A program made the position numbers and the translations under genes. Below, piece by piece: positions 1,538-13,018 of a stretch of DNA of 13,056 bases. Source of the stretch: Gemmatimonadota bacterium (lineage in GTDB: Bacteria; GCA-2686955); contig NYZA01000225.1 of NCBI GenBank assembly GCA_002686955.1, forward strand, positions 1 to 13,056, given 5' to 3'. Under the pieces are notes generated by a model that saw nothing but the letters and a program-made list of their open reading frames with translations, was not told the DNA's origin and did no database searches. The first letter of the stretch is position 1, and every line of letters begins with the position of its first letter.

Positions 1538-1861
1538 ATGGCTCTACAAGACATTACGTCGGTGTCTGCCTCGAGCGGGGCGCAGCAGCAGAGTCTGCTG
1601 TTCGGCCCTCACGAGGCGCTTGAGACGCCGAGCGAAGCTCTGGACGACGGAACAGGGCATCGAGCGCTTGAGAATCGTCATTTTCACCCGCCGGGTGAGA
1701 TCGTCAAGCTGGCGGGCAAGACCGTGTACTCCATGGCGCAGCAGGGGTGGATACCCGCATTCAAGGTGCGGGGCCAGTGGCGGATCAGGCGATCCGAGCT
1801 CGATCGGTGGATCGACGCCCAGCAGCGGAGCCGGGGAGAGGACGGCGATGGCGAAGGGTAG
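1538..1861 (+). pseudogene. Excisionase/MerR-like helix-turn-helix remnant fused to repeat sequence
   Basis: The C-terminal half (codons from 1706) reads KLAGKTVYSMAQQGWIPAFK, then a short wing-like stretch QWRIRRSELDRWID. This is the second helix, recognition region and wing of the excisionase-type helix-turn-helix domain often found just upstream of DUF1016 nucleases. The first helix expected before it is missing. In its place the frame runs back through a 79-bp sequence (1627-1705) that recurs near the right end of the window. The repeat match ends exactly where the helix-turn-helix homology begins. The open frame could still be translated from ATG 1538, but I see no convincing ribosome-binding site there. 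The 3' end overlaps the following nuclease gene by 14 bases, as expected for a coupled pair. I infer a 5'-truncated, probably inactive gene. Confidence 0.55.
1627..1705 (+). repeat. 79-bp dispersed repeat, copy A
   Basis: It aligns without gaps to the reverse complement of 11144-11222. Base-by-base comparison gives 66 of 79 identical. The match starts at GCCGAGCGAAGCTC and ends at CGGGTGAGATCGTC, with no similarity beyond either edge. In this copy it forms the N-terminal coding part of the helix-turn-helix remnant. Confidence 0.8.
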
Positions 1862-3130: not shown

Positions 3131-3206
3131 TGGTGGAGCCAAGGGGGATCGAACCCCTGACCTCGTGACTGCCAGTCACGCGCTCTCCCAGCTGAGCTAT
3201 GGCCCC
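3131..3206 (-). tRNA. tRNA-Ala (anticodon GGC)
   Basis: The 76-nt cloverleaf can be folded by eye. The acceptor stem is GGGGCCA with TGGCTCC, which contains the G3-U70 wobble pair that marks alanine tRNAs. The D arm is GCTC/GAGC, the anticodon stem CGTGA/TCACG with loop CTGGCAG (anticodon GGC), and the T arm AGGGG/CCCCT with loop TTCGATC. CCA is encoded. The 3' end faces the decayed accessory stretch to the left, the usual orientation for an island next to a tRNA, but I found no direct repeat of the tRNA end further left. Confidence 0.95.
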
Positions 3207-3518: not shown

Positions 3519-3594
3519 GGGCCCATAGCTCAGCGGTTAGAGCTGCCGGCTCATAACCGGTAGGTCCCAGGTTCGAACCCTGGTGGGCCCACCA
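3519..3594 (+). tRNA. CAT-anticodon tRNA, most likely tRNA-Ile2 (lysidine type), else tRNA-Met
   Basis: This is a 76-nt cloverleaf. The acceptor stem is GGGCCCA/TGGGCCC, the anticodon stem GCCGG/CCGGT with loop CTCATAA (anticodon CAT), and the T arm CCAGG/CCTGG. CCA is encoded. CAT is used by initiator Met, elongator Met and the Ile2 tRNA, whose C34 becomes lysidine. The three G-C pairs of the initiator anticodon stem are absent. The C4-G69 and C5-G68 pairs and the short D loop AGCGGTTA match E. coli Ile2 rather than elongator Met, which has U4-A69 and A5-U68. I therefore favour Ile2. An automatic annotation would probably say Met. Confidence 0.9.
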
Positions 3595-4405: not shown

Positions 4406-4788
4406 GGGGAGCGGGTGTGACGGCCGCGGGCCCTTCGAGGGCTCGAGGAAAGTCCGAGCTCCACAGGGCACAGGTGCTGGGTAACGCCCAGGAGGGGCGA
4501 CCCTCGGAAAGTGCAACAGAGAGTAGTCCGCCGTTGGTCTCTGGCCGGCGGTAAGGGTGAAAGGGTGAGGTAAGAGCTCACCAGCGGCCCGGGTGACCGG
4601 GTCGGCTAGGCAAACCCCACCTGGAGCAAGACCAAATAGAGGAGGAGGGGTGGCCCGCCCCACTCGACTCCCGGGTTGGTCGCTCGACGCGCCGGGCAAC
4701 CGGCGTGCAAGATGGATGGTCGTCCCCTCGGCCTCGGTCCTTCGGATCGAAGCCGAAGGAACAGAACTCGGCTTACGGCCCGCTCCCC
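4406..4788 (+). ncRNA. rnpB: RNase P RNA, bacterial class A
   Basis: This is the catalytic RNA that removes 5' leaders from tRNA precursors together with the RnpA protein. The conserved blocks appear in order: GAGGAAAGTCCGAGCTCC (4445-4462), GGAAAGTGCAACAGAGAG, AAGGGTGAAAGGGTGAGGTA, GGCTAGGCAAACCCC, GCAAGACCAAATAG, AGATGGATGGTCGTC and ACAGAACTCGGCTTACGG (4761-4778). The ends were set by the P1 helix, where GGGGAGCGGG (4406-4415) pairs perfectly with CCCGCTCCCC (4779-4788). This gives about 383 nt, normal for class A. It lies between the zinc-ribbon gene and rel, about 36 bases before the rel start. No separate terminator is evident, so rel may be transcribed from the same region. Confidence 0.96.
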
Positions 4789-4824
4789 ACTCCGGTCCTT
4801 CCATTCGCGAACGAAACAAGGGCG

Positions 4825-7014
4825 ATGACTCCAGAGCAGAAGCAAGACCCGGCCCGGATGACCAAGGAGGAGTTCCTGGGTGCGGTCGATCTGCTCTCGC
4901 CCAACGTCGATCTTTCGGTCGTCTCCTCCGCCTTCGATTACGGGGAGCGCGCCCACCAAGGGCAGCTTCGTACTTCGGGCGATCCCTACTTCACGCATTC
5001 GATGGCGGTGGCGCTCAGCCTTGCCGAGTGGCACCAGGATTCGCTCACGATCGGCGCCGGACTGATACACGACGTTGTCGAAGACACGATTTCGACATCT
5101 GAAGACATCGCCCGCGAATTCGGCTCGGAGATGGCGCAAATCGTCGACGGCGTCACTAAGATCTCGACGCAGTTCGTCTTTACCTCGACCGAAGCAAAGC
5201 AGGCGGAGAACTTCCGGAAGATGCTCGTTTCGATGGCGCGAGATATTCGCGTGATCCTCGTGAAGTTCGCCGACCGGCTGCACAATATGCGCACCCTCGG
5301 TCATCTGATCGAAGCGAAGCGGGAACGGATCTCGCTCGAAACCCGAGAGATCTACGCTCCACTGGCCCATCGCCTGGGAATGGCGAAAGTGAGATGGGAG
5401 CTCGAAGATCTCGCGATGAAGCATCTCGATGCGGACGCTTACCGAATGGTCGCGGAGAAGGTCCAAGCGAAGCGCGAAGAACGCGAAGTGCTTATCGATT
5501 CGGTCCGTAACCCCCTCACCAACCGCATCGCGGAAGCAAGAATAGATGCGTCCATAGTGGGACGGCCGAAGCACTTCTACTCGATCTACCGGAAAATGTT
5601 GTCGCGAGATAAGCCCTTCGAGGAGATCTACGATCTGCTGGCGATCCGTGTTGTTACTGACTCGGTGGAGCATTGCTATCATATTCTCGGGATCGTTCAC
5701 AGTCTCTGGAAGCCGCTCAACGATCGCTTCAAGGACTACATCGCGACGCCGAAGTCGAATATGTATCAATCGCTGCATACGACGGTTGCGGGCGATTCGG
5801 GCGACCTTATCGAGATTCAGATCCGAACCGACGCGATGGATCAAACCGCCGAAGAGGGGATCGCCGCCCATTGGCTCTACAAGGAGCAGAGCGAGCGCAA
5901 CGCCGACGAGGAACAGTTCGTCTGGCTGCGTCAGCTCATGGAGAACCAAAAGGACCTTTCCGATCCGCGCGAGTTCATGGAATCGCTGAAGATCGACCTC
6001 TTCCAAGAGGAGTGCTTCGTTTTTACGCCGAAGGGAGATCTGCTGCGCTTGCCACGCGGTGCGACGCCGATCGATTTCGCCTTCGCCATCCACACCGAGG
6101 TAGGGCTGCACTGCGCCGGCGCGAAAGTGAACGGACGCTTCTCCACGCTGACCACTTCGCTCAAGAGCGGCGATATGGTCGAAGTCGTTACGTCGGCGCA
6201 ACAGAGACCCTCGCGCGACTGGCTGAACGCGGTGAAAACCAGCCGTGCGCGGGTGAAGATCCGGCAAGCGCTCCGGCGCGCCGCCAGGAAGCAGTCGATC
6301 GCGATCGGCCGGCAAATCTTCGAGCGGGACGCGCGCAAGCGACGGATGAGCATCAACCACACGAAGAGCTTCGTCGACATGCTGGCGACACTCGGTTTCG
6401 ATTCGGTCGACGATCTCTTCGTGGCGATCGCCGACGGCGAAGCATCGAGCAGCTATGTTTTGAACCGACTGGAGCCCGAAAGGAAGGAAACACGCACCTC
6501 GACGCCGGCGGTTCTCGACCGCATCATCGATCGGACGCGCCGAGTAAAAGGGGTGCGGATCGACGAGGTGGACGATGTGCTGACACGGCTGGCGGAGTGT
6601 TGCCAGCCGGTGCCGGGGGACCGTGTTTTCGGCTACATCACCCGGGGGCGCGGCTTGACGATCCACCGGGTCGATTGCCCGAACTCCTTCGCGCTTGGTG
6701 ATACCGATCGCAGAATCGACGTGCATTGGGCGGTCGAGGGGGACGAGCGCTTCGTCGTCGACGTGACGGTGGTCGGGAGCGACCGGGCAAATCTGTTGCT
6801 GGATCTGACGAAGGTGATTTCGAAGATGGGGATCAATCTGCGCGGTTCGACCATGAATGCCGAAGGAGGCGAGGTCGAGGGGCGCTTCGTGATGGAGATC
6901 GCGAACGGGACGCAGCTCAGCAAGATCTTGAGAGACCTTACGAAGGTCAAGGGGGTGACGAGTGTCCATCGCCGCTCGTCGGGGATCGAGGATTCGCGCA
7001 GAAGGGGAGGATGA
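4825..7014 (+). CDS. rel: Bifunctional (p)ppGpp synthetase/hydrolase (RelA/SpoT family)
   Basis: It encodes 729 residues, the usual length of long RelA/SpoT homologues. ATG 4825 is chosen because an aaggg element lies just upstream and the protein then starts like its relatives. An earlier in-frame ATG at 4705 lies inside the RNase P RNA and is rejected. Domain order: HD hydrolase with H58 and HDVVED (H82-D83, E86-D87), synthetase, TGS (about 397-457, CFVFTPKGDLLRLPRGATPI), and ACT at the C-terminus (about 643-717). The synthetase carries RFKD at 301-304. The RxKD form of this motif marks bifunctional enzymes, while synthesis-only RelA has ExDD. It makes and degrades the stringent-response alarmone from ATP and GTP/GDP and senses uncharged tRNA on ribosomes. 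The stop overlaps the next start (ATGA). Confidence 0.96.
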   Translation: MTPEQKQDPARMTKEEFLGAVDLLSPNVDLSVVSSAFDYGERAHQGQLRTSGDPYFTHSMAVALSLAEWHQDSLTIGAGLIHDVVEDTISTSEDIAREFGSEMAQIVDGVTKISTQFVFTSTEAKQAENFRKMLVSMARDIRVILVKFADRLHNMRTLGHLIEAKRERISLETREIYAPLAHRLGMAKVRWELEDLAMKHLDADAYRMVAEKVQAKREEREVLIDSVRNPLTNRIAEARIDASIVGRPKHFYSIYRKMLSRDKPFEEIYDLLAIRVVTDSVEHCYHILGIVHSLWKPLNDRFKDYIATPKSNMYQSLHTTVAGDSGDLIEIQIRTDAMDQTAEEGIAAHWLYKEQSERNADEEQFVWLRQLMENQKDLSDPREFMESLKIDLFQEECFVFTPKGDLLRLPRGATPIDFAFAIHTEVGLHCAGAKVNGRFSTLTTSLKSGDMVEVVTSAQQRPSRDWLNAVKTSRARVKIRQALRRAARKQSIAIGRQIFERDARKRRMSINHTKSFVDMLATLGFDSVDDLFVAIADGEASSSYVLNRLEPERKETRTSTPAVLDRIIDRTRRVKGVRIDEVDDVLTRLAECCQPVPGDRVFGYITRGRGLTIHRVDCPNSFALGDTDRRIDVHWAVEGDERFVVDVTVVGSDRANLLLDLTKVISKMGINLRGSTMNAEGGEVEGRFVMEIANGTQLSKILRDLTKVKGVTSVHRRSSGIEDSRRRGG

Positions 7015-11222: not shown

Positions 11223-11243
11223 ACGATCAGGAAGTTGTTAGAC
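11190..11243 (-). other. attC-like palindrome at the 3' end of the HNH-toroid gene
   Basis: On the minus strand the box GTCTAAC (11237-11243) fits the integron core consensus RYYYAAC and contains the gene's TAA stop. It is followed by the imperfect palindrome described for repeat copy B. The expected closing box GTTRRRY is not intact: after GGAA the sequence reads TAGGGC, as if GT were lost. It is either a degenerate attC site or a repeat with a chance core box. Confidence 0.4.
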
Positions 11244-12905
11244 CTTCTTGCCTTGCAGCTCACGTGCAACCCTCACCCTGGGTACCACATCTCTAACTAC
11301 CGCCTCTCGCACCGCATGCCCAGACTCGCAGAGCGTGTCCAGCTCCGCGAGGATACTCGCTGGGATCTCCGTTCGCCCATTCAGCAATTCCTGGCACTCC
11401 TTCAGGATCGGGTCAGATCGCTCCAAGAACGTACCCTTGTCCAAAGCATCTCCCAAATCCAGCATTCGGCTGAATGTCAAGACCGCGTGCCAAGTGTGCG
11501 TGAACCATTCGGCCGGCGCGCTGTTCCATTTCAGCCCTGCTATTCCAAGCCATGACAAGCCCTCCTCCACGTCTCCGGGAGAGATGTGCGCGCGCCGCTG
11601 GAGTTGCAGCGCCGCATCGACATACGACGCACATGTACCAACATTTGGGACTGAGAAACAGCGATCACCCTCGACTCCGCCGAGTGGCATACCGTCAGTC
11701 CGTTTGCCAATGCCCTTCAAGTGCTCGAAGACCATGACGGCTTTGTCGACCCACACGGGCTCCATCCATACATCCTCTATCCGGAGAAGTTTCGCTAGGA
11801 GAAGCAGGGTGTAGAAACAGGCAGTATCTGGGTGATCGTCCGTACACCACATCGCATTCGCTGGGGAGATTGGGCTCAGCAGCGTCTCAATCCCCTGTCG
11901 GATCGCCCCACTCAATCTCTCGCGCTGCGACTTGAAGCTCATGTACTGCCGTAGCGTGCTGAACGCCTCGAGTAGCTGAATTGCGGTATGATGCATCGGA
12001 GGCCATTCGCGGGAGGCCTCCATGACCGAGAGCAACATCTCTCCCCGTTCCTCTATCCATTTCCCGATCTCTCCGCGGGCGGCCGATGATGCGACGTGAC
12101 CCCGCAGTCGCGTCAGGGTAAGGATCGCAGCGGACGTATGGCGGATCTCCTTTCGCAGACCCTGCACCTCGTCAGGGTTTCCCGGGCTCCTGGGTTGTAT
12201 CAGACCGAAGTGGGTCTCATTTCTCTCTATCCACGCCCGGATTGGGCCCGCATCTACGCAACCCGGTCGACACCCGTAGTCCCCCAGCGCCTGCAACGCA
12301 AGCGCTGTATGCGTAATGCTGCCGTCGCGCAGGTACCCGTCCTTCCCGGCGATCACGGCTGGGTCACGCGCGTAGTTCAGAAGAATGTAACGGTCTATCG
12401 TCAGTCCCCAAGTGCCTACACGCGGGATCTGATCCAGCCGCAAGAGTACGTACGCCACGCGACATAGACTTGAAGTCTCGCACGCATTTGGCACGCGAAG
12501 CGGTTCGGCCTGCCCATCGGCCTTGCCGCGTTCGCCTCTGTGCGTGCTATTGGTTTGACTTGGTCCGCTCGCTTGCCCAAGTGCATGCCCGTCTACACCC
12601 GGCCCCACCCTTTCCGCACACTCGGCCGCTTGGAGAAATTCGTACAATTCTGACCTACACTGTATCAACTCGCCTTCCGAGTAGTTCTTGGCGAAACCTC
12701 CTCTCTTCTCCACATCGTCGTGATGCTCAAGGCACAGGAATACGAGATTCGCCTCCCGGTTGTTTCTTGGGTCGCGATCGATGTGGTGTATCTGCCCCTT
12801 CCTTTCGACATCCAGTCGTCTCAAGGTAAAACACAGACAACAACGCCTCCTGCTTTTGCGCAGGAGATCCCCTTCTTGCTTCTTCGGGATCTTCTTTCTG
12901 GTCAT
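11238..12905 (-). CDS. HNH endonuclease fused to a helical alpha/alpha-toroid-like domain; possible defence cassette
   Basis: It encodes 555 residues from ATG 12905, 11 bases past a GTTAGAC box, without a clear Shine-Dalgarno sequence. Residues 15-95 form an HNH (beta-beta-alpha metal) domain: C22 and C25 (CCLC), QIHHIDRDPRNNREANL with H40/H41 and N49, and CLEHHDD giving C58 and H61/H62. These provide a CxxC...CxxH zinc site and the H-N-H catalytic set. Residues 92-143 look like a flexible linker. The rest is helical, with repeated segments such as SLCRVAYVLLRLDQ...GTWG, GSITHTALALQALGDYG and WFTHTWHAVLTFSRML, reminiscent of prenyltransferase/squalene-cyclase toroids. Its catalytic residues are not recognisable, so a sensing or binding role is as likely as enzymatic activity. 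No partner gene lies alongside. The function is unknown; a nuclease effector is inference. Confidence 0.85.
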   Translation of the reverse strand: MTRKKIPKKQEGDLLRKSRRRCCLCFTLRRLDVERKGQIHHIDRDPRNNREANLVFLCLEHHDDVEKRGGFAKNYSEGELIQCRSELYEFLQAAECAERVGPGVDGHALGQASGPSQTNSTHRGERGKADGQAEPLRVPNACETSSLCRVAYVLLRLDQIPRVGTWGLTIDRYILLNYARDPAVIAGKDGYLRDGSITHTALALQALGDYGCRPGCVDAGPIRAWIERNETHFGLIQPRSPGNPDEVQGLRKEIRHTSAAILTLTRLRGHVASSAARGEIGKWIEERGEMLLSVMEASREWPPMHHTAIQLLEAFSTLRQYMSFKSQRERLSGAIRQGIETLLSPISPANAMWCTDDHPDTACFYTLLLLAKLLRIEDVWMEPVWVDKAVMVFEHLKGIGKRTDGMPLGGVEGDRCFSVPNVGTCASYVDAALQLQRRAHISPGDVEEGLSWLGIAGLKWNSAPAEWFTHTWHAVLTFSRMLDLGDALDKGTFLERSDPILKECQELLNGRTEIPASILAELDTLCESGHAVREAVVRDVVPRVRVARELQGKKV

Positions 12906-12915
12906 CGTTCAAATG

Positions 12916-12972
12916 GTCTAACGCTCCGGTTCAGCGGCGGCGCTTGCGCCGTCCGACTGCAACCGGTTGTGT
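12916..12972 (-). other. Integron attC-like recombination site upstream of the HNH-toroid gene
   Basis: Read on the minus strand it ends in GTTAGAC (12916-12922), a perfect GTTRRRY core box. CCGGTTCAG (12926-12934) pairs with CTGCAACCGG (12957-12966), CGG with CCG, and CGGCG with CGCCG around a tiny loop. Three bases (12952, 12956, 12960) bulge from the same strand, as extrahelical bases do in attC sites. The other core box is degenerate (GTTGTGT on the plus strand). Confidence 0.65.
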
Positions 12973-13018
12973 ACGCCCGGCATGGGCGTGAGCTTACGGG
13001 GTTCAAGTCCCCCATGGA
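12971..13018 (+). other. Structured segment with two hairpins, possible group II intron fragment
   Basis: ACGCCC and GGGCGT close a small loop around 12973-12990. About 8 bases later ACGGGGTTCAAGTCCCC (12996-13012) gives GGGG/CCCC around a 7-base loop. The combination resembles a part of domain I seen in some bacterial group II introns. The second hairpin alone also resembles a tRNA T arm, but no matching acceptor or anticodon arm is present. The window ends before this can be settled. Confidence 0.3.

What the first reader, a model, noticed from the sequence alone, without database searches (positions are those of the whole stretch)
12916..12972. attC-like site with same-strand bulged bases just upstream of the HNH-toroid gene
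The perfect GTTAGAC box, the palindromic arms and three bulges on one strand together fit integron attC architecture. The gene's ATG begins 11 bases past the box, as in many cassettes. This implies a chromosomal or mobile integron array extends beyond the right edge of the window.
Basis: partly seen in the sequence, partly recalled or inferred. Interest (0 to 1): 0.62.

Follow-up and report, generated by a model that had tools for sequence, protein, structure and literature searches.

The report
attC site interrupted by group-II intron
The hairpin just upstream of the HNH gene is a genuine integron recombination site (attC), and its far edge is cut by the first 86 bases of a known kind of mobile intron that homes to attC sites, where the contig also stops; it is a well-formed example of a known association, in a scarcely sampled bacterial lineage.

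Summary
Confirmed: 12916-12970 is an attC site, read top-strand on the minus strand. It has a perfect GTTAGAC R' box, a 17-bp hairpin and three single-base bulges (T12952, A12956, C12960), all on the recombinogenic bottom strand. A covariance model trained on 12 other attCs finds it as the best match in the window (20.6 bits, E=0.0011; next 8.9). The HNH gene starts 10 bases past the box, like a cassette gene. A 92%-identical intron end lies at the same position in a second attC of this genome (contig C169); joining its flanks gives a perfect 60-bp attC. Across other genomes, introns with this 5' end abut attC sites (25 of 82 junctions), while the similar GTGCG-type introns do not (0 of 37). 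No intact integrase was found in the 84.5%-complete genome, only a broken intI-like remnant. So attC and a cassette-type gene: yes. An integron array to the right is plausible but not seen; what lies there first is an intron. New member of a known kind.

The parts
12916..12922 (-). attC R' box GTTAGAC (consensus GTTRRRY), next to the cassette gene start
   Evidence: exact match; covariance-model alignment
12926..12966 (+). attC L'/L'' hairpin, bottom strand: 17-bp stem with extrahelical T12952, A12956 and C12960, all on the 3' (L'') arm; T and C are separated by 6 paired bases plus the extra A
   Evidence: DNA fold z=-3.95; R1 hit 12916-12976(-) 20.6 bits
12967..12970 (+). TTGT: 5' exon end (IBS1), holding the GT of the interrupted R'' box
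   Evidence: same TTGT|GTACG junction in C169; consensus TTGT/T in PMC7923331
12971..13056 (+). 5'-terminal 86 nt of a group IIC-attC intron (GTACGCCCGGCATGGGCG...), cut off by the contig end
   Evidence: 92% identical to the C169 copy; 5' motif shared with 82 junctions in other genomes
11238..12905 (-). 555-aa cassette-type gene: weak HNH (HNH_3) near the N terminus, helical remainder; no other family
   Evidence: ORF; Pfam HNH_3 E=7.7e-4, below cut-off; no relatives in plasmids or viral contigs
11237..11243 (-). GTCTAAC overlapping the gene's TAA stop: candidate R'' box of the cassette's own 3' attC; the rest is not recognised
   Evidence: sequence; no model hit there at E<=10

Best explanation
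12916-12970 is an integron attC site whose bottom (+) strand folded into a hairpin and was used as the landing site of a group IIC-attC intron. The intron RNA-protein complex recognised the hairpin plus TTGT (IBS1) and inserted between GT and T of the R'' box, in the orientation opposite to the cassette gene. The result is R' and L boxes intact next to the HNH gene, and R'' split with the intron in between. Shown here: attC architecture, intron 5' end, junction position and orientation, a second event of the same kind, and a restorable empty site in that second copy. Inferred: the reverse-splicing step, that the HNH gene arrived as a cassette, and that splitting R'' hampers recombination there until the intron is lost.
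For: attC model R1, trained on 12 attCs from plasmid class 1 integrons and intI-linked loci, ranks the site first in the window and gives the C169 site 41.5 bits, E=4.8e-8. Hairpin z=-3.95 with three bulges on the bottom strand only. The exact TTGT|GTACGCCCGGCATGGGCG junction occurs twice in the genome and both times abuts an attC. The C169 flanks join to GCCTAAC...GTTAGGC with both R boxes perfect. GTACG-type junctions elsewhere: 25 of 82 have an antisense attC hit ending at the junction, against 0 of 37 GTGCG-type; other attC hits of 18 bits or more in the same loci 31 against 1. 22 of 38 genomes holding such loci have an intI over cut-off; 0 of 14 controls. Position, strand and orientation equal the published rule for IIC-attC introns (PMC7923331).
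Against: The R'' box cannot be read, so the score is modest (E=0.38 for the whole genome). Only 86 nt of intron are in hand: no ribozyme core, no reverse transcriptase and no 3' junction in this copy. The site has an extra bulge (A12956) beyond the usual two. No second attC is recognised in the window, and no intact intI in the genome. Only about a third of GTACG junctions are called attC by this small model.
Confidence: 0.92

Rival explanations
1. One reading: an attC of a live integron, with the array continuing directly to the right.
For: attC is real; other attC hits in the genome and in the sister genome.
Against: The next sequence is an intron, not R'' plus another cassette; no intact intI found; each contig examined shows single attCs rather than dense arrays. 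The genome is only 84.5% complete, so an integrase could be missing.
Confidence: 0.2
2. An ordinary transcription-terminator hairpin hit by a generic group IIC intron, not an attC.
For: Generic IIC introns insert after terminator hairpins, as the GTGCG-type loci show.
Against: No T-run; the intron end is of the GTACG type; perfect R' box, same-strand bulges and the attC model hit; the same intron in C169 sits in a perfect attC.
Confidence: 0.04
3. A chance palindrome next to a chance heptamer.
For: The heptamer alone is at chance level; the DNA is G+C-rich.
Against: 0 of 200 shuffles fold as well; the 22-nt junction motif with up to 3 mismatches is expected 0.00 times and sits exactly at the hairpin end.
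Confidence: 0.01

Closest known systems
Integron attC sites of small (about 60-bp) cassettes, e.g. attC of aadA1/aadA2
   Same: GTTRRRY R' box, imperfect L boxes, extrahelical bases on the bottom strand; T and C bulges 6 paired bases apart, comparable with the T-N6-C sites of PMC3053210; gene start right after R'.
   Different: R'' is interrupted; one extra bulged A between the two usual extrahelical bases.
Group IIC-attC introns (S.ma.I2, UHB.F1; PMC7923331, PMC8876359)
   Same: Inserted in R'' of the attC bottom strand at TTGT/T, antisense to the cassettes.
   Different: Starts GTACG rather than the GUGYG consensus (a feature shared by 82 junctions found here); only its first 86 nt are available in the window.

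Membership tests
integron attC site | R' box GTTRRRY | tested here: met
   GTTAGAC 12922-12916(-)
integron attC site | R'' box RYYYAAC pairing with R' | tested here: inconclusive
   only GT (12969-12970 +) of it is left before the intron; in the C169 copy R'' is restored perfectly
integron attC site | imperfect palindrome with extrahelical bases on the bottom strand | tested here: met
   17-bp stem, bulges T, A, C on one arm, z=-3.95
integron attC site | covariance-model match | tested here: met
   20.6 bits, E=0.0011, best in window
integron attC site | recombination by an integron integrase | not testable with these tools
   needs an assay
complete integron | intact intI gene | tested here: not met
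   no match over the TIGR02249 cut-off in the 84.5%-complete genome; broken remnant on C58
complete integron or CALIN | two or more attC sites at cassette spacing | tested here: not met
   one model hit in the window, one on C169; contigs are short, so absence is weak evidence
group IIC-attC intron | insertion at TTGT/T in R'' of the attC bottom strand, opposite to the cassette gene | tested here: met
   12967-12971(+), gene on -
group IIC-attC intron | intron 3' end with R'' resuming after it | tested here: inconclusive
   contig ends in this copy; in C169 the intron ends ...ACCCGAT|TAGGC
group IIC-attC intron | intron-encoded reverse transcriptase/maturase | tested here: inconclusive
   none in this fragment; the C265 fragment (RVT_1 and GIIM) falls among proteins of mostly GTACG-type introns but is not linked to this copy

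The most novel reading that the evidence does not exclude
The 555-aa HNH plus helical-repeat protein is a cassette-borne, previously undescribed defence effector, carried like the SIR2-like and AAA/OLD-like genes beside other attC-like sites of this genome.
Probability: 0.2. Interest if true: 0.5.

Novelty: new member of a known kind. Interest (0 to 1): 0.27.

Why it matters
It documents attC sites and attC-homing introns in a lineage whose phylum has only two genomes held here, and suggests why the contig breaks at this point: a repeated intron. It also shows from raw sequence that the intron's first five bases (GTACG or GTGCG) largely separate attC-targeting from terminator-targeting group IIC introns, a handy marker for finding hidden cassettes. 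Otherwise the association is already described.

Tried and rejected
Rfam at gathering thresholds found no intron or attC in the window. A strict RYYYAAC...GTTRRRY pattern scan of intI loci found no more than shuffled sequence and a looser one 32 against 31, so only hand-picked attCs went into the model. A search for integrons in the phylum held only two genomes and says nothing about absence. Relatives of the HNH protein: none in viral contigs, plasmids or PDB sequences; the single-sequence AlphaFold model is poor (pLDDT 44) and was not searched. No sigma-70-like outward promoter was found in the 86 nt of intron.

Full report
Observation. The minus strand carries GTTAGAC at 12922-12916, ten bases before the ATG (12905) of a 555-aa ORF. 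The heptamer class is at chance level in the window (14 against 11.7 expected), so the case rests on the rest. The + strand 12916-12972 folds as DNA into one hairpin with bulges T12952, A12956 and C12960 on a single arm, -18.7 kcal/mol, z=-3.95, with 0 of 200 shuffles as good. Among all 14 RYYYAAC boxes of the window this one has by far the most stable adjoining hairpin.

Covariance model. No attC model is in the libraries at hand, so one was built from twelve attCs: six from class 1 integron cassettes on plasmids (aadA1, aadA2, ereA2, the small cassette after dfrA12, aac(6')-Ib, dfrA27) and six from loci with an intact intI, some with their long central loops trimmed by hand. It finds 12976-12916(-) as the best match of the window, 20.6 bits, E=0.0011; the next scores 8.9 bits. 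Genome-wide the same hit has E=0.38: by itself suggestive, together with what follows firm.

What interrupts R''. On the bottom (+) strand the hairpin is followed by TTGT (12967-12970) and then GTACGCCCGGCATGGGCG. The 22-nt motif is expected 0.00 times in the shuffled window even with three mismatches. The genome has two copies: this one, and C169:13419-13329(-), 92% identical over the 86 nt. The C169 copy also follows an attC directly (41.5 bits, E=4.8e-8). There the intron has been invaded by an IS21-like element, but its 3' end ...GGCTACCCGAT|TAGGC is present. Joining the two flanks gives GCCTAACAAGTCGATGAAGCTGGCGAGGCTTCGCCTCGCAGCTTATCGACGGCGTTAGGC, with both R boxes perfect and bulges spaced C-N6-C. 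The R'' box begins a few bases after the stop of an upstream ORF, and a SIR2-like ORF starts 18 bases past R': a textbook cassette junction.

The intron family. Junctions split by the intron's first bases: of 82 that start GTACG, 25 have an antisense attC model hit ending at the junction; of 37 that start GTGCG, none does, and 24 follow a T-rich tail as at a terminator. Other attC hits of 18 bits or more in the same loci number 31 against 1. Of 38 searched genomes that hold loci of this set (nearly all GTACG-type), 22 have an integron integrase over the curated cut-off, against 0 of 14 control genomes. Published work describes group IIC-attC introns inserted in R'' of the attC bottom strand at TTGT/T and opposite to the cassettes (PMC7923331). 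The window fits in every respect that could be tested. The start GTACG differs from the GUGYG consensus but is shared by the whole set.

The rest of the intron in this genome. C265 begins inside a maturase (RVT_1 and GIIM) that continues to an intron 3' end with the same terminal sequence as in C169; C181 holds a fragment 73% alike. The C265 protein falls among those of mostly GTACG-type introns, with weak inner support. Which of these, if any, continues the window's copy cannot be told.

The larger claim. The window is a whole contig, so the advised 20 kb to the right do not exist. No complete integron integrase was found; C58 has an intI-like N-terminal remnant (84 bits, cut-off 265) with a frame change and no C-terminal half. 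Further attC-like model hits are on C198, C232 and C181; those on C198 and C181 follow a shared repeat end that resembles an IS110-type element (Pfam DEDD_Tnp_IS110 only E=0.039). The sister genome has two hits (34.1 and 29.6 bits). So cassettes have circulated in this lineage, but a complete integron or a dense array is not shown.

Function. The gene starts right after R' as cassette genes do. Its stop codon overlaps GTCTAAC (11243-11237), an R''-like box followed by an imperfect hairpin, but the model does not recognise an attC there, so the cassette's own 3' attC is unproven or decayed. IIC-attC introns are reported to carry outward promoters that can drive cassette genes (PMC8876359); none was seen in the 86 nt here.

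Limits. The model is small and partly hand-trimmed; E-values are rough. The GTACG/GTGCG comparison uses the first 119 stretches of a capped scan.

Noticed in passing
window 11240-11057 (-); L019 2163-2346; L020 about 4823-5018 (-): A repeat of about 185-196 bp with 91-94% identical copies on C186 and C198; the window and C198 copies start right at a stop codon (TAAC/TGAC), attC-like at the start. It contains a sub-threshold group II intron D1 match (RF02005, 20.7 bits, cut-off 49). A further 79 bp at window 1627-1705, inside an HTH/excisionase-like ORF, resembles it at 84%.
   Followed up: partly
L022 (contig C71) 2070-4040 (-): A full-length 1,907-nt group II intron (GTGTG...CCGAT, maturase TIGR04416 372 bits) sits in an attC-like hairpin whose restored box is GT|TAGAC. 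Bulges lie on the intron strand's 5' arm, so it appears inserted in the TOP strand, unlike IIC-attC introns; it is followed by an AAA_15/OLD-like gene.
   Followed up: partly
L020 6392-6940, L201 7030-7169, L202 6355-6480: Several attC-like hairpins directly follow a shared repeat end (GGCCAGCCTGGCCTTGCCC...GGAGGGGGCTCAATGA) next to an IS110-like transposase start, reminiscent of IS1111-attC elements.
   Followed up: partly
L009 (contig C169) 8102-15656: Cassette-like ORFs around the second attC: a Sll1717-family P-loop ATPase, a SIR2-like protein and an IS1595 transposase; the intron there is split by an IS21-like element.
   Followed up: partly
L010 (contig C58) 1258-2174 (+): intI-like pseudogene: N-terminal part of an integron integrase with a frame change and no C-terminal half.
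   Followed up: partly
window 4407-4791 (+); 3519-3591 (+); 3134-3206 (-): RNase P RNA class A (286.6 bits) and two tRNA genes, ordinary.
   Followed up: no
genome G000: Only two genomes of this genome's phylum are held, so the lineage is very thinly sampled.
   Followed up: no
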